Below, piece after piece: positions 9,143 through 34,261 of a stretch of DNA of 34,261 nt. Source of the DNA: a virus. The stretch covers positions 1 to 34,261 of IMG/VR virus record IMGVR_UViG_3300028779_000105; one strand, written 5' to 3'. Both the position numbers and the translations under genes were made by a program. The notes below the pieces were generated by a model, which worked only from the letters and a program-made list of their open reading frames with translations, ran no database searches and was not told the DNA's origin. Within the stretch, counting starts at the first letter, position 1, and every line of letters starts with the position of its first letter.

Positions 9143-10396
9143 ATGGGTTTTCCAACCGCAACCGTAGACGGCACGAATAACCAAGCTATCTCGTGGTTCT
9201 CCGGCGCGGTTCCCATAGACCCAGGAGTCGAGGTCCAGGTCAACGCGCAAGGCTTTTCGGCCAACCCCGTTGACCTGGGGTTCGGCACTCCTTTGCGGTC
9301 GGTCAACGTCTCCGTTACCGTGACCGCGCTAAACGGCGCATCATCGGTTGTGTTTACGGTACAGACCAGCCCGGACGGTGTGCAGTGGTTCGACAACGCA
9401 ACGCACGACAGCGGCCCCGTAACCGGCCCAACCGAAGTTTACATACATTTTATGACGCGCAACCGCTATATGCGGATGTCGTGGACGGGTTCGGATAACC
9501 CGGACAACAACAACCCCGCCGATTACCCGGCAGGCACGTACAAACTACTGTACTTAGCCGGGGCGTATAACGCAAATTACGGGGCCACGAATAATTGGGT
9601 GATCGGCACCAATATAACCAATACGGCATCGACGCCTGCCGCGAGCAACCCGTTGACGACGGCTCCTGGCAACGAGGGTAATATCGGCGGAGTGATCGGT
9701 TCGTTCACGGCTCCTAAGACCACAGAGGCGGCGGCTGAAGCGTATTGGCAGGGGTATACGCAGGAGTTCCAGCACGCCGGTGGTCCTATAGGGCTGTACG
9801 GGTCTAACTGGAACCAAGGGCAAGCGGTACCTAGCTTGCCTGCAACGACCGTTGGGAGCAACGATAACCAGAACCCGGCCGCTCCGGGCGACCAGCCTCC
9901 CGACTTTCAGGACGGCGCATTCACAGGGCTAACGCCGGTGTGGATGCACAACCAACCTGGCTATAACCTGCTTGCCTGCGTGTCTACTGCGGCGGCTATT
10001 GGGGCGGTGACGCCGAATGTCTGGAAGGTGGGTTTGCAGTGGGACGATTACGGTGCTGACACGTTCGACACCGGCGTTTTGCTGATTGCGGGAACCACGA
10101 CCCCGATACCTACGGGCCAACCTTTACAGTCAGACCAGACGGAGATTATCGAGCTTAAGGCAAACGGGTTCCTTCCGGACGGAACCTACCGCGAGTACAC
10201 GTTGTCAACGCCGGTTGCCTGTAATTACATAATGCTCTACAGGTACTTCGACACGCATCCGCTGAACGTGCAGGTACAGCTCATAACGTGGTTCATCCTG
10301 CCGAGTGTGAACAACTCAACGCCGCTGACGTGGCAACTTGAGAGCGAATCGAACGTCTCGTTTATATGGCAATTCAAGGTTGCCAACGTAGGGTAA
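9143..10396 (+). CDS. Head-fibre or decoration-like protein, 417 residues
   Basis: The N-terminal ~120 residues are a paralogue of the preceding 159-residue protein, so the pair arose by tandem duplication. The remaining ~300 residues are different: a long Asn/Thr/Pro/Gly-rich beta segment, an aromatic stretch around residues 195-240 (WQGYTQEFQHAGG), and a C-terminal beta-sandwich-like region with regularly spaced Trp residues (VWKVGLQWDDYG, near 293). No signal peptide or membrane segment. I read it as an elongated exterior head protein anchored to the capsid through the shared domain (inference). The stop at 10396 is followed four bases later by the DUF5672-type gene. Confidence 0.65.
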   Translation: MGFPTATVDGTNNQAISWFSGAVPIDPGVEVQVNAQGFSANPVDLGFGTPLRSVNVSVTVTALNGASSVVFTVQTSPDGVQWFDNATHDSGPVTGPTEVYIHFMTRNRYMRMSWTGSDNPDNNNPADYPAGTYKLLYLAGAYNANYGATNNWVIGTNITNTASTPAASNPLTTAPGNEGNIGGVIGSFTAPKTTEAAAEAYWQGYTQEFQHAGGPIGLYGSNWNQGQAVPSLPATTVGSNDNQNPAAPGDQPPDFQDGAFTGLTPVWMHNQPGYNLLACVSTAAAIGAVTPNVWKVGLQWDDYGADTFDTGVLLIAGTTTPIPTGQPLQSDQTEIIELKANGFLPDGTYREYTLSTPVACNYIMLYRYFDTHPLNVQVQLITWFILPSVNNSTPLTWQLESESNVSFIWQFKVANVG

Positions 10397-10399
10397 CTT

Positions 10400-11035
10400 A
10401 TGCTTGACCTTTCCACGGTGACTCTGTGTGCGATTGCTACCCGTGACCACGAGGCGGCGGCTTACGCATTCCGCAAGTCGCAGGACGGCGTTGCCTACCG
10501 CAACGAGGTAGTGTTTAGCGATAAGCCTGAACTGTTCGTTGGGCCGAACCTGGCGAAAGTGCGTATCCCTCCCTTTGCCGAGTACCCGGACGTTTGTATA
10601 TGGTGGGTGACGCGGTTTGCCGATTTGGTTCTTCCGCTGATCGGCACGCATTGCCTACAAACCAACTGGGACGGGTTTGTACTCAACCCCGGCGCATGGC
10701 GTGAGGACTTCCTTCAATGGGACTTCATCGGCTCGCCCATGCACGGACACACAACGGGCAACAACGGTTTTTGCTTGTGCTCGCGTCGGTTCTACGAAGC
10801 CATGAAGGGGCTTAACGTGGCCCCAAACGCGCAGTCGTGCTTCCCTAGCGATCAGAAGGTTTGCATACAGTACCGCGCTCATATGGAAGCACAGGGCGTT
10901 CGGTTTGCTCCGGTGGAAGTGGCGCGTCAGTTCGCTAGAGAAAACGACCCGCCTTACGGCACGGAGAGCTTCGGAGGTCACGGTAAGCTGTTCGTCGCCA
11001 ACGTAGTGCAGCAGAACCGGTACATCCTGCATTAA
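10400..11035 (+). CDS. DUF5672-type glycosyltransferase-like protein, 211 residues
   Basis: The central part carries the hallmarks I associate with DUF5672: a hydrophobic strand then QTNWDGFVLNP (about residues 87-97), W-x-x-x-F-x-x-WDFIGSP (102-114), then a Gly-Asn-Asn-Gly-Phe turn and a CSRRFYEAM helix. This fold is related to GT-A glycosyltransferases; the Asp in DGF and the aromatic WDFIG block are the conserved features. The usual acceptor is unknown. It is the first of three sugar-transfer-like genes in the virion region, so a virion protein is a plausible acceptor (inference). AGGG in the preceding gene's stop region serves as ribosome site. Confidence 0.7.
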   Translation: MLDLSTVTLCAIATRDHEAAAYAFRKSQDGVAYRNEVVFSDKPELFVGPNLAKVRIPPFAEYPDVCIWWVTRFADLVLPLIGTHCLQTNWDGFVLNPGAWREDFLQWDFIGSPMHGHTTGNNGFCLCSRRFYEAMKGLNVAPNAQSCFPSDQKVCIQYRAHMEAQGVRFAPVEVARQFARENDPPYGTESFGGHGKLFVANVVQQNRYILH

Positions 11036-11040
11036 CAGCA

Positions 11041-11071
11041 AAGCCCCTCGCCTTGTGAGACGAGGGGCCTT
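11041..11071 (+). terminator. Hairpin after the DUF5672-type gene
   Basis: GCCCCTCG (11043-11050) pairs with CGAGGGGC (11061-11068) around a ten-base loop. There is no T-run. It precedes the strong Shine-Dalgarno at 11075-11085, repeating the hairpin-then-ribosome-site layout seen at 7452, 8557 and 9094. Terminator, attenuator or processing site are all possible. Confidence 0.5.
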
Positions 11072-11074
11072 GCC

Positions 11075-11150
11075 GGAGGTGGAGGACCTAATGAACGCTA
11101 AGATTGTACCATGTAAAGGACAAAAATCACAGTCAGATACCGCTCCCTAA
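11075..11150 (+). pseudogene. Orphan start region (Shine-Dalgarno plus 19-codon frame), probably the detached 5' end of the following glycosyltransferase gene
   Basis: GGAGG occurs twice (11075-11079, 11081-11085) and is followed at ideal spacing by ATG at 11091. The frame then reads only 19 codons, starting Met-Asn-Ala-Lys-Ile-Val-Pro, and stops at a TAA (11148-11150) inside the right-end hairpin of the tnpB element. The next glycosyltransferase gene, on the far side of the element, has no ribosome site and begins Met-Ser-Lys-Ile-Val. The simplest reading is that the element landed in the 5' end or leader of that gene. A separate short leader peptide is the alternative. A second AAAGGA lies at 11115-11120. 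Confidence 0.45.
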
Positions 11151-11300
11151 AGGAAGCGGCTTGTCCCTAGACCGATAGCGGTTGCACTTGGCAATCGCGT
11201 GTCTGAGACGATAGGCTTTCTGACGGAAGCCCGTCGGAAGGTGAAGACCAACCGACAAGGTGTTTATCACGGATATTGAGCGCGGCATTAATGTCAGCAT
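11140..11300 (-). ncRNA. Likely omega-RNA (reRNA) region at the 3' end of tnpB
   Basis: TnpB proteins use a guide RNA made from the 3' end of their own gene and the right end of the element. Here the minus strand, right after the tnpB stop, reads AAGCCGCTTCC-TTTAG-GGAGCGG-TAT, a stem-loop (11140-11159) of the form typical for such right ends (AAGCC...TTTA...GGTA). The variable guide would begin just past it, reading toward lower coordinates (about 11138 to 11118). The 5' limit is not visible and the boundary at 11300 is only nominal. Confidence 0.42.
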
Positions 11301-12327
11301 TAGCACGATGACCACACGAACGACAGACAAAACGAGATTGAGAAGGACGGTTGCCTCGGTAGACGTGTCCGCAAACGGCACACCTCTGCGAAGTATGACG
11401 TGGATCGACGCCAACAACGCGGCAACCCTTCTCCTCGGCCTTGTATTCGATGAAACCGGCAAGTTGAGCGAACGACCACGAGTGCAGACGCCGCTTGGCT
11501 TCTCCCCGCGTGGCCTTCACCCGCTGCCGAATGTTCGTCAGGTTTTCCACAACGATGGTAGTTCCCGCCGTGATGCCGTGCAGTATAGATTTGCTCAATA
11601 CGTGGTCGCAATCGCGTCGGAATCGCTGTTCGCGTCCCGCGAGGCGGCGAAGGTGCTTTTTGGCGGACTTCGAGCCGTTCGATTGAAGTTTCCTTTTGAG
11701 GCGGAAACGCCTTTTGCTGACTTCGCGCCAGCATTTCTTGCCGTGCAGACGCCCGTCGGAAGTGACGGCAGGGCGTGTCACGCCCAGGTCAACGCCGAGG
11801 GCCGTACCATTGTCTGCGAAAGTCACATCGTCAAGTTTCAGAACGACGTGCAGGGTGAAGCGACCCTTACGGTACATCAGGTCGGCAGTGGCAACGCGAT
11901 TGCCGACAAGTGCCATAGCGTAGGCAGGAACCGCAAAGGCTACCTTTTGACGCCCTGCGACAGTGGCAAGGTTGGCAAGTCCTGTCCGCCAGTCCACCGA
12001 GAACGAGTTGCAGTTGTAACGGGGTGGGCAGAGCGTGGACTTAGGACAGCCAACTTTGCGCCCTTTCTTGTCCAATGCGATTGCCGACTTGACGGCTTCC
12101 GATGCCTTCTGCCGCGCCTGAACGTGCAGGTCAGAAACAAGTTTCGGGCAGAGTGCTTTGCAGTCTCGGTAAGTAAGTTTGTGAAGGGTGTAGGCGTTCC
12201 CTTGTTTAAGTCGCCAGCCTTCAGCACAGACAAGATTGAACGACTGCGTAAATTGACGCATCGTTTCCAACAGGCTTTCGGCCTGTTCCGGTGTGGGTTT
12301 CAGGGGCAATCGCACCGTTCTGTCCAT
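11167..12327 (-). CDS. tnpB: TnpB, RNA-guided RuvC-like DNA endonuclease
   Basis: TnpB cuts double-stranded DNA next to a short target-adjacent motif, directed by an RNA from its own element; it is the ancestor of Cas12. From the ATG at 12327 the protein has 386 residues, a normal size. The N-terminal helix-turn-helix-like start reads RLPLKPTPEQ. The three RuvC acidic residues are present: Asp180 in LGVDLGVTRPAV, Glu261 in IVVENLTNI, Asp345 in HRANADINAALNI. The zinc ribbon has four Cys (316, 319, 335, 338; CAVCG and CRSCG). A longer reading to 12414 runs into the left end, so I chose the ATG that gives the family-typical beginning. Codon use and orientation differ from its neighbours, as expected of an insertion. 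Confidence 0.9.
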   Translation of the reverse strand: MDRTVRLPLKPTPEQAESLLETMRQFTQSFNLVCAEGWRLKQGNAYTLHKLTYRDCKALCPKLVSDLHVQARQKASEAVKSAIALDKKGRKVGCPKSTLCPPRYNCNSFSVDWRTGLANLATVAGRQKVAFAVPAYAMALVGNRVATADLMYRKGRFTLHVVLKLDDVTFADNGTALGVDLGVTRPAVTSDGRLHGKKCWREVSKRRFRLKRKLQSNGSKSAKKHLRRLAGREQRFRRDCDHVLSKSILHGITAGTTIVVENLTNIRQRVKATRGEAKRRLHSWSFAQLAGFIEYKAEEKGCRVVGVDPRHTSQRCAVCGHVYRGNRPSQSRFVCRSCGHRANADINAALNIRDKHLVGWSSPSDGLPSESLSSQTRDCQVQPLSV

Positions 12328-12333
12328 GCCTCT

Positions 12334-12363
12334 ATTATGCCATATGTTTGCACGTTTTTGCAA
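12334..12363 (-). promoter_or_regulatory. Putative tnpB promoter, possibly giving a leaderless transcript
   Basis: On the minus strand TTGCAA (12358-12363) and CATAAT (12334-12339) are 18 bases apart, a good sigma-70-like match. The CATAAT ends only six bases before the tnpB ATG at 12327, so transcription would start at or next to the start codon. By inspection only. Confidence 0.33.
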
Positions 12364-12419
12364 GCATAATTCTAAACGAAAGGTGGGGATACGCCTTCGG
12401 CAGACAGGAAGCAATTCCC

Positions 12420-12440
12420 CTGTCGGCTAAAGCCGAACAG
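12420..12440 (-). repeat. Left-end hairpin of the tnpB element
   Basis: CTG-T-CGGC (12420-12427) pairs with GCCG-AA-CAG (12432-12440) around a short A-rich loop, flanked by CCCC on both sides. A subterminal imperfect hairpin like this is characteristic of left ends in the IS200/IS605 superfamily, where the transposase binds. It lies about 18 bases before the ATG of the downstream glycosyltransferase-like gene. Confidence 0.5.
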
Positions 12441-12458
12441 TCCCCTTGCTTGCTTGAT

Positions 12459-13295
12459 ATGTCTAAGATCGTAATTCCTATCGATCGTCCGCTAAAGGTC
12501 GGTATCGCCATATGCACTCACGCGAGTATCCCCTACGTTCACCTTGGACTTGAAGCTCTCAAACGCAATGAGCCTGAAACGCCGGTGCTCATACATGACG
12601 ATAGCAGCACTAAGCAACTCGAACTCAGGCTCCTTGCGCAGTCGGAACGCTACGGCGCGTCGTTTGTGAGTACGGACTTTCGCAAGGTTCCCACGATAGG
12701 CGACATGAGCGGCTTTGCAGAAGCGCTTCGTTGGGGTGAAGATAATGCGCTTGACGTGGTGGTTAAGTGCTCACGTCGGTTCATCCTTAACCGGGCATGG
12801 TCAACGGGGCTTGCGGAGATATTTCAGAACTACCAGTATGCGACCGTGACCGGCGCTTGCGCGTGGTATGGGTTCGGGTTCAGGTCCGAGCTTGTCGCCA
12901 TGCACGTACCTTCTTACATTGCGTCGGGTGTCTACGCGCAGATGAAAGAGGCGGTTCGCATCAACCAGCGGGTAGACCCGTTGCCGGAAGCGTGGTATCA
13001 CCGCAAGGCGCGGGAAGTGCATCGGTTCGTTCATCCGTTAGACGTAAACGTTTCGCACTCGGATAACGCACACCATCCCGATTGCGACTTTGTTGTACGG
13101 CACGAAAACAGCTATCCACGGTCAAGCAGTAACGACGGGTACGCTCACTGGCCGCTCATGGGATTGCACAGGCACCAGCGCGTTCAGGGAACGGTTTGGC
13201 ACGACTCACACGCCGAAGGTGATTATTACCTGCTTGCAAAAGAGTTCGGTTTACCTTACGAATTGTCCGACTTCCACCATATACAGGGGGAATAG
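12459..13295 (+). CDS. Glycosyltransferase-like protein (GT-A type), 278 residues, 5' region displaced by tnpB element
   Basis: The N-terminal strand PLKVGIAICTHASIPYVHLG (residues 12-31) followed by a helix and VLIHDDSS (42-49) is the beginning of a GT-A/GT2-like nucleotide-sugar binding fold; the Asp-Asp pair fits the sugar-nucleotide site. A later His/Asp-rich C-terminal part (GTVWHDSHAEGDYYLLAKEFG, about 246-266, of which 20 or fewer residues are conserved in type) resembles the acceptor end. The specific sugar is unknown. The ATG at 12459 has no Shine-Dalgarno: CCCCTTGCTTGCTTGAT precedes it, derived in part from the element. The original ribosome site is probably at 11075-11085 on the other side of tnpB, so expression may be low or lost. 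Confidence 0.6.
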   Translation: MSKIVIPIDRPLKVGIAICTHASIPYVHLGLEALKRNEPETPVLIHDDSSTKQLELRLLAQSERYGASFVSTDFRKVPTIGDMSGFAEALRWGEDNALDVVVKCSRRFILNRAWSTGLAEIFQNYQYATVTGACAWYGFGFRSELVAMHVPSYIASGVYAQMKEAVRINQRVDPLPEAWYHRKAREVHRFVHPLDVNVSHSDNAHHPDCDFVVRHENSYPRSSSNDGYAHWPLMGLHRHQRVQGTVWHDSHAEGDYYLLAKEFGLPYELSDFHHIQGE

Positions 13296-13298
13296 ACA

Positions 13299-14264
13299 AT
13301 GGGCGAACCGCGTAAGATAAGGCTACTTCGCAAGCAATGCCCCGGTGACGTGACCGTATTCACGGCGGCTATCAAAGCGCTTCACATATCGCAACCGGGC
13401 GCGTTCCTTACCGACTATCATGGCTATCATCCGTCTCTCCTTGAGAACAACCCGTACATCACTCACCTTGAACCGTGGGAAGGGCAGGAAGTCGATACGG
13501 ATTACGGATACGCGTGCATGAGATCGGGCAGGCCGTTTCATTTCCTGTACGGCTATGTTGAGAACCTGTCAAAGCAACTCGGCGTACATATCGAACTAAG
13601 CGACTTCCGGGGCGACCTTTATCTATCCGATGCCGAGCGCGAGCTTTACCCCGGTCTGAAACCGCCGTACATCGTGATTAACGCGGGGTCGAAGGGCGAC
13701 ATTACCGCGAAACAATGGAGCAACCATCGCTTTCAACAGGTGGTAGACGCGCTTCGTGACCGCTTCCAAATCGTGCAGATAGGCGGGGCGTCCGATCACC
13801 ATGCGCCGCTTACGGGCGTGGTCAACCTGATAGGTCAAACGACCATCAGGCAGCTCATACAGATCGTTCACCGATCTTCCCTTGTGATAACCGGCAACTC
13901 GTTTGCCATGCACCTTGCGGCGGCTGTACCTGGCACGGAAACGAATCCGGACAGGCAAAAGATACGACCCTGCATCGTGCTTGCGGGACAGCGGGAACAG
14001 CGACAGTGGTTCCACTATCCGGGCCATACGGCGCTTGGCACCGAAGGGCGATTGCCCTGCACGTTCAGCACGGATGCGGACGCTTTGCCTATCGGTCCCG
14101 GCGAGGCGTGCTGGGTGAACAAGACCGTTCTGATACCCGGTGACAGAGACCGCAACATATGCAAGTCGGCTATCCAAGACGAAAAAGGCCAATGGCTCCC
14201 GCAATGCCTTCACAGGATAACGGCGCGGCACGTAATTGAGGCGGCAGAGGCGTATTTGACATGA
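13299..14264 (+). CDS. GT9-like glycosyltransferase (heptosyltransferase fold), 321 residues
   Basis: GT9 enzymes are GT-B fold transferases that include the lipopolysaccharide heptosyltransferases. Recognisable here: an N-terminal strand with Pro-Gly-Asp (KQCPGDVTVFTAAI, residues 12-25), the C-domain start PYIVINAGSKGDITAKQW (about 125-142), and the signature region LIGQTTIRQLIQIVHRSSLV then ITGNSFAMHLAAAV (about 181-215). Classical enzymes have Asp-Ser-Gly where this has Asn-Ser-Phe, so donor or acceptor use may differ. Size is near the family norm. GGGGG precedes the ATG, and the gene ends in an ATGA overlap with the adaptor gene, tying it to the virion operon. ADP-heptose use should not be assumed. 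Confidence 0.75.
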   Translation: MGEPRKIRLLRKQCPGDVTVFTAAIKALHISQPGAFLTDYHGYHPSLLENNPYITHLEPWEGQEVDTDYGYACMRSGRPFHFLYGYVENLSKQLGVHIELSDFRGDLYLSDAERELYPGLKPPYIVINAGSKGDITAKQWSNHRFQQVVDALRDRFQIVQIGGASDHHAPLTGVVNLIGQTTIRQLIQIVHRSSLVITGNSFAMHLAAAVPGTETNPDRQKIRPCIVLAGQREQRQWFHYPGHTALGTEGRLPCTFSTDADALPIGPGEACWVNKTVLIPGDRDRNICKSAIQDEKGQWLPQCLHRITARHVIEAAEAYLT

Positions 14265-14980
14265 CCGGACAGGACGTAATACAACGGGTGCTTGTTGACC
14301 TTGGCGAGAGTAAATCGACCGCCGCCGTTCAGCAGATGATGCGCTATCCCGACCATGTACGGTTCACGGCAGATCAGATAGCACGCCGCACGTGGTCTTT
14401 ATATAAAACAGCCGTCACCGACATAATAGCAAACCAGATCGAGTACACGCTACCTTCAAAGCCGTTCCGAGACATGGCTATGAACATCGTAGACGCTTAC
14501 GGGTTTGTGTGGCCCATCGCTCAGATCACGCCGGAACAGGCCGATCAGCAGTACTTCGGGTGGCGCGACCCGCAAAACCTGTACCTTGGCGACGGACGGC
14601 CCCGCGTGGCTATCGTGGAAGGCTTGCTCACGTACAAGCTGTACCCGGTCCCGAACTACAATGCACAAGACGGGCTCATGATTAGCGGCTACTTCGGCGT
14701 TGACAAGTGGTACGACATCAACATGGAGTCGCCCCTTCAAGTGGGGGCTGACGAGTGCTGGATTGCAGGTGTATCCCTCCGTCGATGCAAGGAGATGCGC
14801 CGCGTAGACCCGACGTACTCCGAGCTTATCCCGTCGCTTGAGATCGACTATCGGACGCTGTGGCAACAACTGTACGGCGAGTCCGTGGGTGCCAACGCGG
14901 CCCGTCGCGGCGGCATAATCCCCGCCATCGGCAACAGGTACAACCTTGGCGGCGGGTGGTCATGGGGTGGGTCTTACTAA
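14261..14980 (+). CDS. Head-tail adaptor-like protein, 239 residues
   Basis: The N-terminal helices, the strand IEYTLPSKPFRDM (about residues 60-72), and a Trp/Tyr-rich middle with LYPVPNYNAQDGLMISGYFG resemble the adaptor or tail-tube-A-like proteins of short-tailed phages, which form a ring below the portal and bind the nozzle. The C-terminal ~30 residues are Gly-rich and may be disordered. It starts in a four-base overlap with the GT9-like gene and its stop overlaps the next start (TAATG, 14978-14982), so these genes are translationally coupled. Assigned by layout and general resemblance only. Confidence 0.55.
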   Translation: MTGQDVIQRVLVDLGESKSTAAVQQMMRYPDHVRFTADQIARRTWSLYKTAVTDIIANQIEYTLPSKPFRDMAMNIVDAYGFVWPIAQITPEQADQQYFGWRDPQNLYLGDGRPRVAIVEGLLTYKLYPVPNYNAQDGLMISGYFGVDKWYDINMESPLQVGADECWIAGVSLRRCKEMRRVDPTYSELIPSLEIDYRTLWQQLYGESVGANAARRGGIIPAIGNRYNLGGGWSWGGSY

Positions 14981-15736: not shown

Positions 15737-16231
15737 ATGTCCTCGTCAAGTCCCTATCCGTTTGGCCGGCAGTGCGTTCGGCTCATGCAGCCGGACGTGA
15801 ACACGACCGAGTACATAGTAAGTGGCAACTTGCAGATCGGCATAACCATGCCGTATGACAGGCTCACAAACTACGTGGGGCAATTTCCGACAGGTGGAGG
15901 GCCGGACACGCTCACCATCGCGTACACGGACACTATGGGCCAATCCCAAGGGCCACTTGTGCTGAATGTGACCTTGTGGATGAGTGATACGGGCTACTGC
16001 TTCATCAGTCAGGACGGCACGAAGCAATTCCTTGTTGCGGGGGTAAACGGGACATTCTTCGATGCCAACTACGCATCGGTGAACGCGCGTAATGTCGCGG
16101 CTTTCGCGCCTGCACTTGCGACCCAATGCACGAATGCGAGCGGGTACGACTATACGACCCTGCTACCCGACCAGATACGGCCCGTGACATTCATCGTCAA
16201 CGGGCAAACCTACAGCGAATATTCCGCTTAA
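15737..16231 (+). CDS. Virion-associated module protein, 164 residues, duplicated in the next gene
   Basis: A beta-rich protein of unknown family. Its core (about residues 14-160) is closely related to the C-terminal ~150 residues of the 507-residue protein encoded next: shared blocks include LQIGITMPYD, GGPDTLTI, WMSD-x-GYCFIS, DGTKQFL, FFDAN and YTTLLP. Most positions are identical by eye. GAGGAAG precedes the ATG by a few bases. The GGPDTLTI and WMSD blocks look like strands of a compact jelly-roll or lectin-like module (inference), and its duplication suggests it anchors or caps a virion part. Confidence 0.65.
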   Translation: MSSSSPYPFGRQCVRLMQPDVNTTEYIVSGNLQIGITMPYDRLTNYVGQFPTGGGPDTLTIAYTDTMGQSQGPLVLNVTLWMSDTGYCFISQDGTKQFLVAGVNGTFFDANYASVNARNVAAFAPALATQCTNASGYDYTTLLPDQIRPVTFIVNGQTYSEYSA

Positions 16232-16244
16232 AGGGCAAAACAAA

Positions 16245-17768
16245 ATGAGTACGCTACTACTGAACGCTTTTACGGACGCTTGGGCTACGCTGTATTACGG
16301 GGCGCGAAACGACTGCCCGAAGTCGGCCCCGGTTATCAACAATGCCGCCGACGCTCGCAGGGCGGCATGGAACGCTTTTGCGCTCATGGCAAGCCCGACG
16401 CTGAACACGACAAAGGAAGTGCCGATCTTGGAATCGGCCCTAGCGAGCGTCCAAGGTATGCAACTATCCTCCGGCGCGTTTGACCCGCCTGACACGAGCG
16501 ACAACGAACACAACTCCGCGCTTGGCGACGGGGTAGAACTACCGGCTATGAAGGCGCTCGCCGATAGCGGTCTGTTACCCGCCGTATCCGGCCCGTGGCT
16601 CACTTCGATCGACAAGAACACTCAGTACCTTGTCGGCCCGGATGCTACGGCGTACAACGCTTCGAGGGTGAACTACAGTCACAGGGACAGCATCGACGCA
16701 AGCCTAAAGCTGTACCAGTACATCCTTTATCCGACTTCTGACAACCTGACGGCATTCAACACGTCCTTTGCCACATTGCAGGGCGATATGCTCGGTGCAG
16801 GTTATCGGATTGCGCTCATGCCCTACGGATGGCCCGGACAGATTATTGCGCCGGGTGGAACTCCTACGCCGGGGAACATCGGACTGGAGTCGGCTTACGG
16901 CGTCATGCCAGAGCGCGATCACAGCGGACTTACCTCGCAGGTGGTCGGCTACGATGCTTCGTACCAGATGGTTGACTTGTACTCGCTCGCTACCCTGTCG
17001 CTCATGGCACAGGACGCGGGGCTAACGTCCATAGCGACGGCGGCAAACACGCTGATTGGTTATCAGCAAGACCTTCTGACGCGGTGCATTACCCCGAACG
17101 GCGTAAACATCGCCGGATGTTGCAGGGTAGGCGGTTCGACTGACCCGGTAACGGGCAAGTACACCCCGTTCGAGACGGACCCCACGACGGGGGCAGGCAA
17201 GACATACGACGTGGTAACGGCCAAGGTCGCGGCCCAACTTGCTTACCACGCAACCGGCGTTCAGGCATGGGCTACGGCGCGTGATATGCTTGTGGCGTCC
17301 TACGGTGATTACGGGCGCATCTGTACGCGGATTGCACAGCCTGGTATCAAGACGACCGAGTACATCAAGAACAACGCTTTGCAGATCGGCATTACGATGC
17401 CCTACGATCAGGTGACGACCTTTGCGCCTCAGTTCCCAACGAACGGAGGGCCGGACACGCTCACGATCACGTACACCGATCAGACAGGACAGCCGCAAGG
17501 TCCGTTGACGCTGAACCTGACGTTCTGGATGAGCGACGCGGGGTATTGCTTCATCTCGGCTGACGGCACGAAGCAGTTCTTGATAGCGGGTGTGAACGGC
17601 GCGTTCTTCGATGCCAACTGCACGGCGATCAACAACCGCAACATAACGGCATCGGCAACACCGCTCGCGGGTGTGTGCATGAACGCCGGCGGGTACGGAT
17701 ACACGACCCTGCTACCGAACCAAGTAAGGCCGGTCACGTCAATCGTCAACGGCCAAACTACGGATTAG
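16245..17768 (+). CDS. Two-part virion protein: helical, enzyme-like N-terminal region plus duplicated C-terminal module, 507 residues
   Basis: The first ~345 residues are mostly helical and periodic in the manner of alpha/alpha-toroid carbohydrate-active proteins, with aromatic clusters such as MPYGWPG (about 191-197) and an Asp/His/Tyr-rich stretch (PERDHSGL then GYDASYQMVDLYS). The last ~150 residues repeat the preceding 164-residue protein. A soluble protein with a separate terminal attachment module is typical of depolymerase-type tail spikes, so host polysaccharide degradation is a reasonable but unproven idea. No lysozyme or amidase motif is visible. AAGGG precedes the start. The Ala-Ser-Pro and Tyr content is like its neighbours, so no sign of recent transfer. 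Confidence 0.62.
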   Translation: MSTLLLNAFTDAWATLYYGARNDCPKSAPVINNAADARRAAWNAFALMASPTLNTTKEVPILESALASVQGMQLSSGAFDPPDTSDNEHNSALGDGVELPAMKALADSGLLPAVSGPWLTSIDKNTQYLVGPDATAYNASRVNYSHRDSIDASLKLYQYILYPTSDNLTAFNTSFATLQGDMLGAGYRIALMPYGWPGQIIAPGGTPTPGNIGLESAYGVMPERDHSGLTSQVVGYDASYQMVDLYSLATLSLMAQDAGLTSIATAANTLIGYQQDLLTRCITPNGVNIAGCCRVGGSTDPVTGKYTPFETDPTTGAGKTYDVVTAKVAAQLAYHATGVQAWATARDMLVASYGDYGRICTRIAQPGIKTTEYIKNNALQIGITMPYDQVTTFAPQFPTNGGPDTLTITYTDQTGQPQGPLTLNLTFWMSDAGYCFISADGTKQFLIAGVNGAFFDANCTAINNRNITASATPLAGVCMNAGGYGYTTLLPNQVRPVTSIVNGQTTD

Positions 17769-17965: not shown

Positions 17966-17995
17966 ATTATAGCGCACTATGTCTCAACAAAGCAA
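17966..17995 (-). promoter_or_regulatory. Putative sigma-70-like promoter for the minus-strand small gene
   Basis: Reading the minus strand, TTGCTT (17990-17995) and a perfect TATAAT (17966-17971) are 18 bases apart. The transcript would start near 17960 and give a leader of about 40 bases before the ATG at 17920. It overlaps the start of the divergent 1278-residue gene (17979), so the two could interfere. Confidence 0.35.
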
Positions 17996-20900
17996 CAATC
18001 CATACGCAAATAGTGGCGTGGCCGTTATCGACGAGTCGCGACTGTTCCAAACGGTCGATCTCTACACGCCGATACAGAGCATGGACGGCCAGATGCTGTT
18101 AGCCGCCGATAATATGAGCAACGCCGCTGGCGACCTCATAGGCAGGCCGGGACGGGTAGGCAGGTACGGCGGCTCGCAATCTTCATCAAGCAACAACGAC
18201 CATGTTAGTGGCACCTCCTCTTCGAGTAGTTCGGCATACCAGGATGACGGCTTTACCTACTACGGCGTTCCCCCCGGCGCGTCCTACGACATTACGGACT
18301 ATACCGACGGCCAAGGGTATCACTGGATGCTCTTTACGTCGGGCGGCAAGCTATACAAGACGCAACAGGGTACCAACAGTTACACGGAACTGCTGACCAC
18401 TACGGGTAGTTCGTTCGCCATAAACAGCGCGACGGTCGACTCCTGCACCATCGGCAACTACGTTTACATATCGGATAACGTCAACCCGTGGGTTCGCGTG
18501 TCGTTGCTCGGCGGGTTCCCCGTAGTCGCCATGATTGCGCCGGTTGACGCGCCTACGGTGGCGCTCACGGACCTCGTTATTGACACGCCAACCGCTTCCC
18601 AGTGGAACCCTGGGCCGACGCCGAACAACGTACTGACAACCACGAGCGGCACGTTCTCCGTGCCTTCTACGGCCATATCGAGCGGCTTACTGGAGTCGAT
18701 TAACAACGGCAGTTCGTTCATAGGCAGCCCAACGCCGGTGACGATTCCCGTAGTGTCCACAAACAACTTCGCGCAGTACAGTTCTGTAACGATTCAATCG
18801 AGTGCGACGAACTACGCGTATTTCACCATATCGGCAGCTGGCGGCGGCAATATAACTGGGTACTTCACAGGTGGCACGGCGGCAGGCACTACGATGCCTA
18901 TGGGCGCATCGGTTATTCCAGCTACGCTAAACGGTAATCCGGGCTTTGATATTGGCAGCGGTCAAGTCCTTTCAGGCGTGCTTGGAGTAGGTAATCCGTG
19001 GGGAGGTGCGAACGGGCCATACCACTATCCGGGCGTGTCTCCGGACTACGGGCCGGGGTCTTATCCTACCGCAAGTGAACGGCCCTACTTATCCCATAAT
19101 TGGAGCCTACTGCTAGACAACGCGGCGGACGCGATAGGTGAGACGATCTACGCGGTGCCGAACGATCAAACGTCATGGCCTAACCCTAGCGGACTGAAGA
19201 ACGCGGCATCTTTCCTGTTTACCTGTTGGTCTCTGCAACAATCGGCGGGTTCAACGGCGTCATTAGCAGTCACGATGCAGCCATACAGCAGTGGTGGCAG
19301 TCCCTTGGCCGGGGCAGTCACGCAACTGCTGTATCCCGACTCGGCAACTAATTGGTTGCAACTAACAGCCGCGTTCAACTTTGCCGAAACGCTGCCTAGC
19401 GACCCAGACCATTACGAGTTTATTCTGTCGTCGGGGCCATCCAACACCAGCGGTAACGGTGTTTGGGTCGCGCAAACCTCACTGTCAACGCTGAATAACT
19501 CACCTTCTCTGTCAAGCTCAGGCACCACTCAAGTAAAGTGGCAATCGCTTTACAACACTATCGGCGGCGGCTACATGGTGCGCGATTACGGCACCATCAG
19601 CTACACCGACATTGCCGTTGACGCCACGACCAACACGAAAGTAACAAGTGCGCTTACCCCGTTCACGTCGGCGGATGTTGGCAAAACACTCGTTATCACT
19701 GGCGGCACAGGATTCACACCGGGGGCGTACACGATCAGTACCGTCGTTAGCAATGTGGCGACACTAAGCGCGTCGCCTGCGGCGACCAGCACGACGGGCG
19801 GCTATGGCAACCGTAGCGGTTCAGGCGTAAAGGACTTCTCGCAGGTAGGCATACTTGCAATGGCATGTACCAGCCCGATACCGCTAACAGACTTATTCCT
19901 GCGGTTCGGTTTCGTGCAGGATGGGACCGACACGATAGCGTGGTCGAACGACATATTGTTCAACGCGACGGGAACTGTGGCGTACTGCGACATATCCACG
20001 CTGACCGGCTCGATCAACCTGGCCGATATACGTTACCTGTATATCCAGGCAGTACTAGACCTTCCATTAGCCGACATACCTCCGAACACTAAGACCAACG
20101 TGCTGACGTTTGGTCCGCTCACGTCAGGCGGCAACCTGACCGTCGGGCAGGCCAATTACATCTACTATGTGACCGAAACAGCGGTCATTGACGAGTTCGA
20201 CAGTATCCAAAGCAACCCTTCGGCGGGTAGCGCGAACGTCATACCTACAGACGGGCAGGCGCAAGCTCAGATAACCATACCTGCGGATTGCCCGAAGAAC
20301 GCGCTTACCACGCAGTACAGCCTATGGCGGCTAGGCGGTGTGTGGGATGACACGCGGCTCATTGCGACGGTAGGCAAGAATGCGACAGTAGGCGCGAACG
20401 GCGCAAACGCGACAGATTCAACAAACCCGTATTACAGCTACGCTTCGGGTGTGTTCATCGACAATACGCCGGACATATGGCTGACGCTCGCAACGCTGAT
20501 TAGTTTTGGCCGTGACCCAATGCCTACTGTTGTTGGGGCGCAAGCGGAATGGCAAGGTAGGCGGTGGGCGGCTGTCGGTAACACACTGTACGGTTCGTGG
20601 CTTGCGAACTCGGACACATCAGCAGGCATGATGACCACGCTGATACTGGACACGTCGGACCCTAACGCGGCCATCGAAGGGTGCAACTTCCCCATATCCC
20701 AAGACCCTACGGATACCATCGTCAGGCTTATCCCATACGGCATACCGATAGAGGCGGGTAATGCGTTTGGCGGCGGTTTACTCGTGCTGAACAAGCGGTC
20801 GGTATTCATGGTGCAGGGTACGGACCCGACTAACTTTGCCATACGCCAATACGACTATGACGAAGGAATAGGGCTAATCGCACAACGGGGCGTGGCCCGC

Positions 20901-21815
20901 ATATCGGCCAACCAACTGATATTCATGGGGCCGGACAGGTTGCATGTATTCCCTCCTCAGGGCGATGCCGTCGCAAACGATGTTGGACTTCGTATACAGC
21001 CGGCGTTGTATCCGGCGTATCCCAGGCAACAGGTATTGCAGAACGCTACGGCGTTCGCTAAGTCGTGGATGATGTACCACGATAGCGCGATATACCTCGG
21101 CGCTCCGATGCCCGGTGACGCGGCTCCGTCTGTCGTGTGGAAGTACGACCTTCGCGTTAGGGGATGGACCCGGTGGACGGGTACGCAGGTTCCCGTAACG
21201 GACGCGGGTAACAGCTCGTCAAGTAGCAGCTCTGGCGGTTCCGGCGCTATCTACTACTCGCAGATGAACTTCACGTCGGGCCGTTCGATGCCGCCAAACG
21301 CGCTAGGTTCGCCTTACGAGCTGTACTTCTACGGGAGCGGGATAGATGCGGACGGAAGCAGTAACGGCTTAGGCGGTCAACTGTACGTCATGCAGGGCAG
21401 TATCGACATCGAGACGCCGATAGCTACCGCGACGGCCATTCCTTGTACGGTCACGGTCCATGCGTTCAGGCCGGGGTTCTTCTACAGGTTCAAGCTCCAT
21501 CCCTTGTACTACAGGGAAGCACGGCTTGAGTTCATCGAGATCGAAATGATACTGAACGGCTTGCTCACCATGACCGCGCAGGCGTACAACGCGGGACCGT
21601 CCGGCCCGGTTGCGATACCCGGCGCGGCAAGCGTTCAGCAGTACACGCTTACGGGGCTAGGCCAAGGGTTCCGCAAGGAGATGCCATCGGGGTTGATCGA
21701 AGGCCAGTTCGTCACGCTGACACTGACGTTCGATTGCGGACTAACGCAGGGCAACACCACGTATGTACGGGGCGTTCGGGGCCACGTCACACAGACTGGC
21801 CAAGGCGCGGGCTAA
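17979..21815 (+). CDS. Large tail nozzle-like structural protein, 1278 residues
   Basis: A long, beta-rich, Ser/Thr/Gly/Asn-rich protein without signal peptide or membrane segments. The last third has features common in nozzle or tail-tube-B-like proteins of short-tailed phages: GGGLLVLNKRSVFMVQG (about residues 930-946), a tract with IFMGPDRLHVFP (near 980), then WKYDLRVRGWTRWTG (about 1052-1066) as in a beta-propeller. Two Ser-rich stretches are present, residues 68-85 and 1079-1085. The start at 17979 has no Shine-Dalgarno; an in-frame TAG at 17970 excludes an upstream extension. It is larger than the classical nozzle, so extra domains are inserted, perhaps the variable middle at 200-650. 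Confidence 0.6.
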   Translation: MSQQSNNPYANSGVAVIDESRLFQTVDLYTPIQSMDGQMLLAADNMSNAAGDLIGRPGRVGRYGGSQSSSSNNDHVSGTSSSSSSAYQDDGFTYYGVPPGASYDITDYTDGQGYHWMLFTSGGKLYKTQQGTNSYTELLTTTGSSFAINSATVDSCTIGNYVYISDNVNPWVRVSLLGGFPVVAMIAPVDAPTVALTDLVIDTPTASQWNPGPTPNNVLTTTSGTFSVPSTAISSGLLESINNGSSFIGSPTPVTIPVVSTNNFAQYSSVTIQSSATNYAYFTISAAGGGNITGYFTGGTAAGTTMPMGASVIPATLNGNPGFDIGSGQVLSGVLGVGNPWGGANGPYHYPGVSPDYGPGSYPTASERPYLSHNWSLLLDNAADAIGETIYAVPNDQTSWPNPSGLKNAASFLFTCWSLQQSAGSTASLAVTMQPYSSGGSPLAGAVTQLLYPDSATNWLQLTAAFNFAETLPSDPDHYEFILSSGPSNTSGNGVWVAQTSLSTLNNSPSLSSSGTTQVKWQSLYNTIGGGYMVRDYGTISYTDIAVDATTNTKVTSALTPFTSADVGKTLVITGGTGFTPGAYTISTVVSNVATLSASPAATSTTGGYGNRSGSGVKDFSQVGILAMACTSPIPLTDLFLRFGFVQDGTDTIAWSNDILFNATGTVAYCDISTLTGSINLADIRYLYIQAVLDLPLADIPPNTKTNVLTFGPLTSGGNLTVGQANYIYYVTETAVIDEFDSIQSNPSAGSANVIPTDGQAQAQITIPADCPKNALTTQYSLWRLGGVWDDTRLIATVGKNATVGANGANATDSTNPYYSYASGVFIDNTPDIWLTLATLISFGRDPMPTVVGAQAEWQGRRWAAVGNTLYGSWLANSDTSAGMMTTLILDTSDPNAAIEGCNFPISQDPTDTIVRLIPYGIPIEAGNAFGGGLLVLNKRSVFMVQGTDPTNFAIRQYDYDEGIGLIAQRGVARISANQLIFMGPDRLHVFPPQGDAVANDVGLRIQPALYPAYPRQQVLQNATAFAKSWMMYHDSAIYLGAPMPGDAAPSVVWKYDLRVRGWTRWTGTQVPVTDAGNSSSSSSSGGSGAIYYSQMNFTSGRSMPPNALGSPYELYFYGSGIDADGSSNGLGGQLYVMQGSIDIETPIATATAIPCTVTVHAFRPGFFYRFKLHPLYYREARLEFIEIEMILNGLLTMTAQAYNAGPSGPVAIPGAASVQQYTLTGLGQGFRKEMPSGLIEGQFVTLTLTFDCGLTQGNTTYVRGVRGHVTQTGQGAG

Positions 21816-25151: not shown

Positions 25152-28100
25152 ATGTCAACAACCACGGGAACGAACAACACAATACCGGCTGACTTCGCAT
25201 CGGACGTGCTCGCCATGTCGAAGTCAAACGGCGCGGCATCCTCCGCGCCTGCCCCTGCGCCTAAAATACCGGATAGCTTCGCGTCCGATGTACTTGCGAT
25301 GTCAAAGTCGCAGTCCGCGTCAACTATACCTCCTACGTCTGCATTGCAAAACCAGTTGCGCGACTCCGTGGCTAAAGCCGGAACGCTGAATCAGGCGATT
25401 GTCGCAGGTCGGCAAAGTCCGCTGTATCACGCCGACGATCCTAGCCTTGTTGCGGCGATCAACAAGCAGAACGCGCTCACCCAGCAGGACGAAGGGCAGA
25501 TAAACGCTTACAACGCGCAACATAACCCCGCGATGCAGGCTAACGCACGGCAGGCAGGCCAAACTCCGGCAGGGTACGCACAGGGGCTAACCAACCTACA
25601 AATATCGCGGCAAAACGCGGCTAATGTTCCACCGATTGATACGTCTTTCGGCAAGGCGTTTGGCGATGCTGGGGACCAGATGCTTTCTCCGTATACCGAG
25701 GGCATTGCCGACACGATTACGGGTATTCCATCAGGCATTGCAAGCGTGGCTGGCAATATGGCTATGACGCTCGGCAGGCCGCTCATAAATGACCCTTTAC
25801 AGGTTGCGCACGATGACGCGCTGGCGGCAGGTAATAAAGCGCTGGCGGCCAAGATACTGCACATGCAAATGCCCGGTTCCGCAACAGAGCAGGACCGCGA
25901 CCTTCTTATGTCCGCAGGGCCGGGAATATTTGTTCCCCCGTCCGCAAATAACGCACTTAACGGTTCCCCCGTTCTTGACTTCAAGCATGACCCGCGAGGC
26001 GCAACATCGGAACTGATGGCTGACCTAATGGTAGGTGCAGGTGGTTTGCACGGCGCGGGCGTCGAAGTGCCAACGCCAGGGGACATGGCCGATGCTGTGA
26101 ACAAAGCCATTATGCCGGGTGATGTTGGGAATGTTGCCGACAACCTGCGAACGCCGAACGCAAAGCCTACTGTCGCGCCCTCGCAATCCGGTTTTGCCTA
26201 CCAGGTGGACAACTCGCTTAATGCGAGCTTTGCGCGGTCTGGCGTGAAAGCGCGACAGGCATCACCGCCTACGCAGGCGACGGGTGAACCTCCCGACGAA
26301 ATACAGGTAAATCCTAACTGGAACGCCGATGATTTCCGTTCCCTCGCCAACACATCAACGAATAAAACTTTGGCGGCTGCACGTAACGCTGCGGCTGATT
26401 ACCTCGACAAGAACCACGGAGGGGCATCGTTCGACGGGACTAAACCCGCAACAACCGCGCCAACAATAGGCGATGTTACCCCGCAGGAAGCGCAACAGGG
26501 ACCGGCACCGGACGCGAAGCCGATAGCGGGAACCGTGGCACAACCGCAACCGACGAAGGGCATACAACAAGCAGTCGCAGGTGAACCAGGTGCGCTGAAT
26601 ACCGTGGATGATGTAATACACGCAATCGGCGCGGCAAACCCTGTCTACGCGGACCCGTCTCATGCCGCCGCGCTCAAGGCGCTCCTTGACAGTCACGCGC
26701 AGGCATGGGCTAAGTCTACGGGCCGTCCCATAGCCGACTACGTTCCGAGTGTATGGCACAGCGTGGTCAAGGGGGAAGAGCCTACACAAGAGACGGCTCC
26801 GAGCGGCGTGCCTGCGTCAACTGAGCCGCCCGCGCCGGTAGTCGCGCCGTCTATGGCTCCTGTGCAAGGCGCGGGCGTTCCTGCGACGGCGGCACCGCCA
26901 CGTGTGAACATGGCTTTGCCGATCAGTGAGATACACACTGACCCGCAACGGTTTCAGTACAAGGTGGGCTACGGCACAGGTGGTTCGACCGGCTCGACCC
27001 GCGACATTAAGGCGTGGGACCCGTACAGTGTCGGGTTAAAGCAAGTGTGGGTGGACCCAGCTGACGGCAAGACCTACATGGTCAACGGGCATAACACGCT
27101 TGACCTGGCCAAACGAACAGGCCAAACGACTTTGCCGGTTCAGTACATTGATGCGCCCGACGCCAAGACAGCTCGCGCTATCGGTGCTATTACCAACATC
27201 AACGAAGGTAAAGGCACACCAATTGACACGGCTAAGGCCATTAGGGATGGTGGAGATACTCCGGAATCGCTTGCGGCAAAGGGCGTTAATATCAAGTCTG
27301 AACCTGTACGGCAAGGCATGGCGATGGCTAACCTATCGCCTACGCTGTTCAGCCAAGCCGTTACCGGAGAATTGCCGACCGACCGCGCTACTATAATAGG
27401 CGGCTTACTGCCCGACCACAACGACCAAGCCGCACTGATGAAGTTGCTTGGCAAGCGGAACATGACCAACGACCAGATACGGGAACTGGCCGAGTCTGTT
27501 AATGCCGCTCCGCGCGTCACGTCCACAACGCACAGTCTGTTCGGGGACGATGAAACTACGCAGAACTTGGCCGTAGAACGGGCCAACGTCGCCGCTCACG
27601 TTAAGAGCGAACTCAAGAAAGCGGCATCGGCACTAAAGACGGTGGCAAAGCCGGGTAACGCCGAACGTCTCCATGCCGCCGATAACGTCATTAACGCGCA
27701 AAAGTCGGCTGAATTGGGTACGATAACGGGAAGGGCCGCAGACGTATTCGACCAGTACAAGAATGCGGCGGGAACGTCCGTTAGTGACACACTCAACGAT
27801 GCTGCACGGCGAATAGCCGCAGGAGAGAACAAGAATGCCGTCTATAAGGATACCGTCGCAACGATCAATGCCGCAATCCCCGACCTCGCACGCGGTAACG
27901 ATGGACGACCCAGCAGTACAGCGGAGTTTGGCTTCGGCGGCGATAGCCCACGCGGGAATGCTCAAGTACCCACCATCGAGTATGCCAACGAGGGAAGAGG
28001 TGGAGCGGCTACAGAAGCTAGCCATGCAAAACCCGCTGATAGCACCGAACATGAAGGACTAACCGACACCCTCTTTCAGAAACAACCAGCACCCCATGAC

Positions 28101-32819: not shown

Positions 32820-34261
32820 ATGCCGCCAATCCAGCGCCGTAAACCGTTTACCCCGCCTACGTCCGTAGCAAAGGCTACGGTGTCGAACGCCACACAGCAG
32901 TTCAGCGGTGGTACCCCTGCGGCGATAGTCACGCCGGGTCTGATCGGCCCAACAGGTAGCACAGGACCAACAGGCCCAACGGGTGCGACAGGTCCAACCG
33001 GTCCTGTTGGAGCTACCGGCGCAACCGGACCCTCCGGAGCGATTGGGGCGACAGGTCCAACGGGTAGTACCGGCCCCGCAGGTGTTACCGGCGCAACGGG
33101 CGTCACCGGCCCTGCTGGTGTCACAGGCGCGACAGGTGCAACGGGTGCGGGAACCACGGGTGCAACAGGTCCGACCGGCCCTTCGGGTGCGGCAGGTGCA
33201 GCGGGTGTAACCGGCGCGACTGGACCTTCCGGCGCTGCGGGGGCCGTTGGCGCGACTGGTGCTACGGGTCCTACCGGAAGTGCCGGTGCGGTGGGCGCTA
33301 CGGGGGCGACAGGCCCAACAGGGGCAGGCGTTACCGGGGCTACCGGGCCAACAGGTCCGAGCGGGTCGGCGGGGGCCGTTGGAGCTACGGGGCCAACGGG
33401 TAGTGCCGGAGGTGTCGGGGCTACCGGCGCAACGGGTCCAACGGGAAGTGCGGGCGCTGCGGGTGTTACAGGTCCGACAGGGGCGACGGGCGCTACCGGG
33501 GCCACCGGGGCGAACGGACACAGCCCGATCACGACCATTTCGTCGGGCTCGGTCACGATACCGGCCACCTCTTCGACGGTCGCGGTCACGTTTACGGACG
33601 CGGCGGCTTTTTCGATAGGTCAGTACGTCCTGCTCTACGACGGCACGAGCCGCATGAGCGGCCAGATCACGGCGCTCGCGGGTTCGTCGGTGACTCTTGC
33701 GGCGCTCGGCTACCCTAACGACAACTCGGCGGGTACGGTCATCGGCGCGTCGGCCACGGTCTCGCTGATCGGCAGGATCGGGATTACAGGCTATACAGGC
33801 GGCTCGACGCTGCTGTACTCGAATACGACGGTGCCTTCGGGGAACACCATCGCCAACACGACCACGCCGACCGCGTTCACCTCCTCGTTCGCTATCCCGG
33901 CAGGTTCGCTTGCGGTGGGCCAGGTGTTGCGGTTTCGCATGTGGGGCGTTTACAGCACGGCGCTGGTCGCGCCAACGATCACGGTGCAGCTCCTGTTCGG
34001 CGCGACGGTGGTGAGTACGACGGGCGCCATCACGGCGGTATCTAGCATCACGAACGGCGGTTGGCTCGGAATCATCGACCTAATCGTGACGGCGATAGGG
34101 TCCTCGGGCTCGGTGGAGTCGCAGGGGTACGGCGAGTATTCGACGGCGGTAACGACCGGGCTTTCGGTCAACATGGCGAACACGGCGGCGGTTGGCTCGA
34201 TCAACTTCAACGCATCGCAAACGGCGACGGTGGTGGTGACGTGGGGAACGGCGAGCGCGTC
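32820..34261 (+). CDS. Collagen-like fibre protein (3' end outside window)
   Basis: The frame is open from the ATG at 32820, one base after the preceding stop, to the end of the window (480 codons, no stop). Residues 1-39 are basic and probably anchor the protein; residues 40-234 are Gly-X-Y repeats, mainly GPT, GAT, GST and GVT, forming a collagen-like triple helix, with two places where a residue is missing (near GAGTTG and GAGVTG). From ~237 a beta-rich globular region follows, with [20 protein letters not shown] and [20 protein letters not shown], typical of fibre tips. It is likely a trimeric tail or head fibre contacting the host. Composition changes near 33530 toward NNG codons (TCG, ACG, GCG), so the tip may come from elsewhere. 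Confidence 0.78.

What the first reader, a model, noticed from the sequence alone, without database searches (positions are those of the whole stretch)
10400..14264. Three different glycosyltransferase-like genes embedded in the virion operon: possible self-glycosylation of the particle
A DUF5672-type, a GT-A-like and a GT9-like gene lie between head genes and the adaptor genes and are coupled to the adaptor by a 4-base overlap. Two virion proteins carry Ser-rich tracts (residues 125-141 of the 8597 protein; 68-85 and 1079-1085 of the 17979 protein) that could be O-glycan acceptors. Genes for host-surface modification would more usually sit in early or lysogeny regions, so virion proteins are attractive substrates. 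This link is inference.
Basis: inference. Interest (0 to 1): 0.62.

Follow-up and report, generated by a model that had tools for sequence, protein, structure and literature searches.

The report
Phage enzyme likely glycosylating poly-serine virion proteins
Between its shell and tail genes this uncultured phage carries an enzyme of the heptose-transferring kind whose relatives in other phages always occur with proteins rich in long serine stretches, which suggests that phages use a so far unrecognised enzyme family to coat their own particles with sugar.

Summary
The interval holds a DUF5672 gene, a GT-A-like gene of unproven family and a GT9 gene that overlaps the adaptor gene by ATGA. The Ser tracts are real.

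The GT9 gene belongs to a phage subfamily absent from isolated phages (tblastn) and identified by four invariant C-terminal cysteines. All seven other records found carry a poly-Ser gene, next door in four of the six independent ones. At 12 or more Ser per 20 residues, 8 of 8 GT9 records have such a gene, against 0 of 41 controls. The fold is a heptosyltransferase (WaaF, WaaC, TibC). The cysteine finger aligns with that of BAHT enzymes, which put heptose on serines. One relative encodes HldE/HldD-like enzymes for the donor; another carries two true BAHT genes.

Best reading: the GT9 protein O-heptosylates Ser-rich virion proteins; the second transferase may extend the glycan. No chemistry has been shown.

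The parts
10400..11035 (+). DUF5672 (PF18922) protein, 211 aa; putative glycosyltransferase; link to Ser tracts not supported
   Evidence: Pfam E 1.1e-8; distant relatives in cyanophage glycan clusters
11129..12442 (-). TnpB insertion element bracketed by ACAGTC (11129 and 12437); approximate borders, right-end hairpin near 11139-11160, left-end hairpin near 12421-12437
11167..12327 (-). TnpB RNA-guided nuclease, 386 aa, RuvC D/E/D and Cys4 residues present
   Evidence: NF040570 E 4.3e-50, 171 bits against cut-off 100; sequence
12459..13295 (+). Middle putative GT-A-like glycosyltransferase, 278 aa; conserved next to GT9 in G003
   Evidence: 37% identity over 265 aa to L011:8915-9712; no profile hit
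13299..14264 (+). GT9-like transferase with four-Cys C-terminal finger (C254, C271, C288, C303), proposed protein O-heptosyltransferase; core of the finding
   Evidence: PF01075; A5 alignment; fold; hhalign to BAHT
14261..14980 (+). SU10-type adaptor 1, overlaps the GT9 stop by ATGA
   Evidence: PF24175
14980..15732 (+). SU10-type adaptor 2
   Evidence: PF24175
8597..9076 (+). Post-capsid head protein, 159 aa, with Ser tract 125-141; proposed acceptor; paralogue of the N-terminal part of 9143-10396
9143..10396 (+). Second post-capsid protein, 417 aa, paralogous N-terminus without the Ser tract
   Evidence: phmmer 1.2e-20
17979..21815 (+). Large virion (tail) protein, 1278 aa, Ser tracts 68-85 and 1079-1085; proposed acceptor
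   Evidence: homologue L004 without the tracts
32820..34261 (+). Collagen-like Gly-X-Thr repeat fibre protein, open at the window end; further possible O-glycan acceptor

Best explanation
The GT9-like protein (13299-14264) is a phage-encoded protein O-glycosyltransferase. It takes ADP-heptose, made by the host here, and attaches it to serines in Ser-rich tracts of the phage's own virion proteins: a head protein made right after the capsid protein (8597) and a tail protein (17979). The middle transferase (12459) probably adds a further sugar. Production of the enzyme with the head-tail adaptors lets modification and assembly run together, giving a sugar-decorated particle. Shown here: gene order, the subfamily, its predicted fold, the cysteine finger and the association with poly-Ser genes. 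Inferred: donor, acceptor, extension step and any benefit such as shielding or adhesion.
For: A viral-contig scan keyed on two GT9 motifs that contain no Ser rule returned seven loci, G003 and L054-L059. Every one carries a poly-Ser gene, 30-57 bp upstream of GT9 in L055, L058 and L059 and adjacent in L054. At 12 or more Ser per 20 aa: 8 of 8 GT9 records against 0 of 41 controls, Fisher 2e-9. In relative G001, where no transferase was recognised between capsid and adaptor, the tail homologue lacks both tracts. Relative G003 carries GT2 and GT9 homologues in the same slot and a Ser-rich protein in the virion operon. AlphaFold model pLDDT 84, pTM 0.85; best structures are GT9 3tov (Z 23.8), WaaF (22.0), WaaC (20.7) and TibC (20.2). 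Four cysteines invariant in eight sequences align with the BAHT finger, hhalign E 1.1e-6, probability 91%; TibC's four iron-binding Cys are needed for heptosylation of serines (PMC4358343). L055 encodes HldE-like (E 2.5e-88) and HldD-like (1.3e-65) genes downstream of GT9. G014 (L057) also has two true BAHT genes. Virion glycosylation is known in mycobacteriophages (Freeman 2023, cited in PMC12619734).
Against: No biochemical data. In the window itself the tracts are short (runs of 4-7 Ser) and not next to GT9. Controls are TerL and DUF5672 relatives, not matched for host or phage type; L056/L057 are near-duplicates and some controls are too. HldE/HldD matches are below NCBIfam's strict equivalog cut-offs. 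The sugar pocket carries the LPS-type H205 where BAHT has Trp (by alignment), so the acceptor class cannot be read from the core alone. The 17979 and 8597 proteins are called virion proteins from position and homology, not from proteomics.
Confidence: 0.62

Rival explanations
1. The GT9 and GT-A-like proteins modify the host's LPS or capsule, for example to block superinfection, and sit in the late operon only because that slot collects cargo genes.
For: GT9 family members include LPS heptosyltransferases and H205 is of the LPS type. The slot looks like a cargo site: TnpB here, toxin-like and ART-like genes in G003.
Against: Does not explain the poly-Ser association in all records or the BAHT-type cysteine finger, which is not part of the alignments to the LPS enzymes seen here.
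Confidence: 0.2
2. The enzymes glycosylate the virion, but on other acceptors, chiefly the collagen-like Gly-X-Thr fibre at 32820-34261; the Ser tracts are linkers.
For: GXT repeats are O-glycosylated in some bacterial collagen-like proteins (BclA, own knowledge). L055 has a collagen-like tail fibre next to its poly-Ser gene; the window has a collagen-like ORF.
Against: Collagen-like genes were recognised only in the window and L055, poly-Ser in all GT9 records; TibC modified Ser and not Thr in the tested peptide.
Confidence: 0.1
3. The association is indirect: phages of certain hosts tend to carry both poly-Ser linkers and sugar genes with no enzyme-substrate relation.
For: Controls are not host-matched; the sample is seven independent records with the window.
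Against: Tight adjacency in four independent records; GT9 proteins only 30-40% identical to the window's, so the link has lasted through much divergence; loci with DUF5672 but no GT9 show no poly-Ser.
Confidence: 0.08

Closest known systems
BAHT autotransporter heptosyltransferases TibC and AAH (TIGR04414)
   Same: GT-B heptosyltransferase fold (Z 20.2); four-Cys C-terminal finger with Trp after the second Cys and Ile-Thr after the fourth; proposed Ser acceptor
   Different: No N-terminal beta-barrel (the model starts with the GT-B N-lobe and aligns to TibC from residue 90-91); not detected by the family HMM; poly-Ser rather than beta-helix acceptors; wider spacing between the first two Cys; His instead of Trp in the sugar pocket
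GT9 LPS heptosyltransferases WaaC, WaaF, WaaQ
   Same: Family PF01075, fold, catalytic Asp and Lys-x-Trp positions, S..MHLAAA motif
   Different: Added cysteine finger; linked to poly-Ser phage genes
Mycobacteriophage virion glycosylation (Che8 and relatives; Freeman 2023)
   Same: Phage-encoded transferases thought to decorate the phage's own capsid and tail proteins (cited)
   Different: Acceptors there are C-termini of capsid and tail tube subunits; enzyme relation not compared here
Serine-rich repeat adhesin O-glycosylation (GtfA/B, SdgA)
   Same: Low-complexity Ser acceptor made dense with O-glycans
   Different: Different enzymes and cell-surface adhesins (own knowledge); only a weak SdgA match of L055:10951-11985

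Membership tests
Glycosyltransferase family 9 (PF01075) | Pfam score over gathering cut-off | tested here: met
   41.3 bits against 22
Glycosyltransferase family 9 (PF01075) | GT-B heptosyltransferase fold | tested here: met
   Predicted model: 3tov Z 23.8, 1psw Z 22.0, 2h1h Z 20.7
Glycosyltransferase family 9 (PF01075) | ADP-heptose transferase activity | not testable with these tools
   needs an assay
BAHT (TIGR04414) | Family HMM score over cut-off | tested here: not met
   Window protein gave no TIGR04414 row at E up to 1; of the records searched only G014 and G015 have over-cut-off genes, at other loci
BAHT (TIGR04414) | Four-Cys iron finger in the C-lobe | tested here: met
   Four invariant Cys aligned with BAHT Cys; metal binding itself not testable
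BAHT (TIGR04414) | N-terminal beta-barrel domain | tested here: not met
   321-aa model begins with the N-lobe; aligned to TibC from residue 90-91 on
BAHT (TIGR04414) | Autotransporter acceptor encoded nearby | tested here: not met
   No autotransporter family among the window proteins scanned; poly-Ser tracts instead
DUF5672 (PF18922) | Pfam score over gathering cut-off | tested here: met
   35.4 bits against 24.4
TnpB (NF040570) | Family HMM over cut-off and RuvC residues | tested here: met
   171 bits against 100; D, E, D and CxxC pairs in the sequence
GT-A glycosyltransferase (middle gene) | GT-A fold with DxD-type metal site | tested here: inconclusive
   Model pLDDT 44; no profile match
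Phage virion glycosylation system | Glycan present on purified virion protein | not testable with these tools
   uncultured phage

The most novel reading that the evidence does not exclude
A so far undescribed phage glycosylation system: short GT9 enzymes with a BAHT-like cysteine finger, in several unrelated phage lineages, load ADP-heptose onto poly-Ser brushes of virion proteins. Some phages bring their own ADP-heptose synthesis, and the second transferase varies from phage to phage to give different outer sugars.
Probability: 0.45. Interest if true: 0.85.

Novelty: new variant of a known kind. Interest (0 to 1): 0.68.

Why it matters
Poly-Ser phage proteins and phage glycosyltransferases of unknown target are usually annotated apart. 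If one enzyme family links them, many such pairs in metagenomic phages get a testable enzyme and substrate at once, and protein heptosylation extends from bacterial adhesins to virions. A dense sugar coat would bear on adsorption, particle stability and recognition by hosts or by animal immunity. No match to the family was found in 50,697 isolated phage records, and full-text searches for phage heptosyltransferase or poly-Ser virion work found none.

Tried and rejected
Direct searches with single window proteins found no relatives of the middle gene, DUF5672 or the adaptor in viral contigs, of the middle gene in genome contigs, or of MCP, portal, adaptor, middle gene and GT9 in isolated phages; the TerL of the sibling contig L002 opened the way. 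Structure prediction of the middle gene failed with two sequences, and hhalign of it against an L055 transferase and against DUF5672 gave nothing. Bacterial genomes could not be surveyed for the GT9 subfamily, since no usable centre genome was available. Plasmids gave no match. Microsatellite slippage for the Ser tracts was considered and rejected because codons are mixed. Filing GT9 as a BAHT was considered and rejected because the HMM and the barrel fail, while the likeness in mechanism is kept. A promoter/terminator scan of 10300-14400 gave no more than chance, so transcription of the genes downstream of the TnpB element is unresolved.

Full report
What is in the interval. The window is a 34,261-base virus contig, a short-tailed phage by its P22-type portal and SU10-type capsid and adaptors. 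Between the post-capsid genes and the adaptors lie a DUF5672 gene (10400-11035), a TnpB gene on the opposite strand (11167-12327), a putative GT-A-like gene (12459-13295) and a GT9 gene (13299-14264) that overlaps the first adaptor by ATGA. An ACAGTC repeat at 11129 and 12437, 1308 bases apart (a multiple of three), brackets the TnpB element. A start codon at 11091 with a strong ribosome site stays in frame with the middle gene across it, so the element probably sits in the middle gene's 5' end; this is inference.

The Ser tracts. They are real, confined to two of 28 proteins, written with mixed codons and beyond shuffles of the same proteins. In the 8597 protein the tract is an insertion relative to its paralogue 9143 (for the paralogy; the insertion is read from the sequences). 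In the tail protein both tracts are missing from the homologue of relative G001, which has no recognisable transferase between capsid and adaptor.

Relatives. The sibling contig L002 (99.9% identical) gave the terminase, and a terminase profile gave 39 loci. One, G003, carries homologues of the middle gene (37%) and GT9 (38%) in the same slot, with no DUF5672 and no TnpB detected. Its virion operon, between adaptor 2 and the tail gene, has a protein with a Ser-rich domain of about 150 residues, up to 17 Ser in 20.

The co-occurrence test. A scan with a GT9 alignment, using two sequence motifs unrelated to serine, found G003 and six further loci, L054-L059. Each has a poly-Ser gene; in L054, L055, L058 and L059 it is the immediate neighbour. 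With 12 or more Ser in 20 residues the count is 8 of 8 GT9 records against 0 of 41 others, Fisher 2e-9; with 10 or more it is 8 of 8 against 4 of 41. Leaving out the window and counting L056/L057 once leaves six independent records, all positive. Controls include four loci with DUF5672 but no GT9, and none has a tract. The controls are not host-matched, and this is the main weakness.

The enzyme. Eight aligned GT9 proteins, the others 30-40% identical to the window's, share the catalytic Asp (D17), the Lys of the K-x-W motif (K138) and four C-terminal cysteines (C254, C271, C288, C303). The model (pLDDT 84, pTM 0.85) matches GT9 3tov, WaaF, WaaC and TibC with Z 20-24. The characterised enzymes among the best matches (WaaF, WaaC, TibC) use ADP-heptose. 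TibC holds iron with Cys 339, 342, 358 and 370, and mutation of any one abolishes heptosylation of its adhesin, which takes place on Ser (PMC4358343). The finger of the phage family aligns with BAHT fingers, including the Trp after the second Cys and the Ile-Thr after the fourth (E 1.1e-6). It is not a BAHT by the family model and lacks the beta-barrel.

The donor. L055 encodes HldE-like and HldD-like enzymes in the gene run downstream of GT9 (below strict equivalog cut-offs). L059's next gene has a weak match to a phosphoheptose isomerase family. G014, the record of L057, has two BAHT genes over cut-off, one beside an ORF of strand-loop-strand repeats like those BAHTs modify. The window has no such genes, so the host would have to supply ADP-heptose.

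What remains open. The fold and role of the middle gene; whether DUF5672 is a glycosyltransferase at all and what it acts on; whether the acceptors are truly on the particle; what the sugar is for. Virion glycosylation as such is known from mycobacteriophages, so the kind is known; the enzyme family, the poly-Ser acceptors and the heptose link appear new in the literature I could search.

Noticed in passing
11129-12442: TnpB element in antisense inside the transferase run, bracketed by ACAGTC 1308 bases apart; start codon 11091 with strong ribosome site is in frame with the middle gene across it; the putative guide begins right after the right end (minus strand TGTGATTTTTGTCC).
   Followed up: partly
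L070:1477-4135 (G014) and L072:1447-2925: Two bona fide BAHT genes on a phage contig, one beside an ORF of strand-loop-strand repeats; phage-borne autotransporter-type glycosylation.
   Followed up: partly
L055:16739-18983: HldD-like and HldE-like genes in an 84-kb phage contig after GT9 and a run of transferase-like genes.
   Followed up: partly
L011:7823-8401 and L052:10855-12273: ADP-ribosyltransferase-like and toxin-like cargo genes (by eye, not profiled) in the same head-to-adaptor slot of relative G003.
   Followed up: no
32820-34261: Collagen-like protein with long Gly-X-Thr repeats, open at the window end.
   Followed up: partly
1-84: A 39-base insertion holding a palindromic hairpin (GGCAGTGGGTCAGTTTGAACTGACCCACTGCC), present here and absent from the otherwise 99.9% identical sibling L002.
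   Followed up: no
25152-32819: 2555-aa protein with a PBECR5 nuclease-like domain (979-1138) and a region like phrog_21.
   Followed up: no
15737-17768: The 164-aa protein and part of the 507-aa protein are near duplicates (phmmer 8e-68).
   Followed up: no
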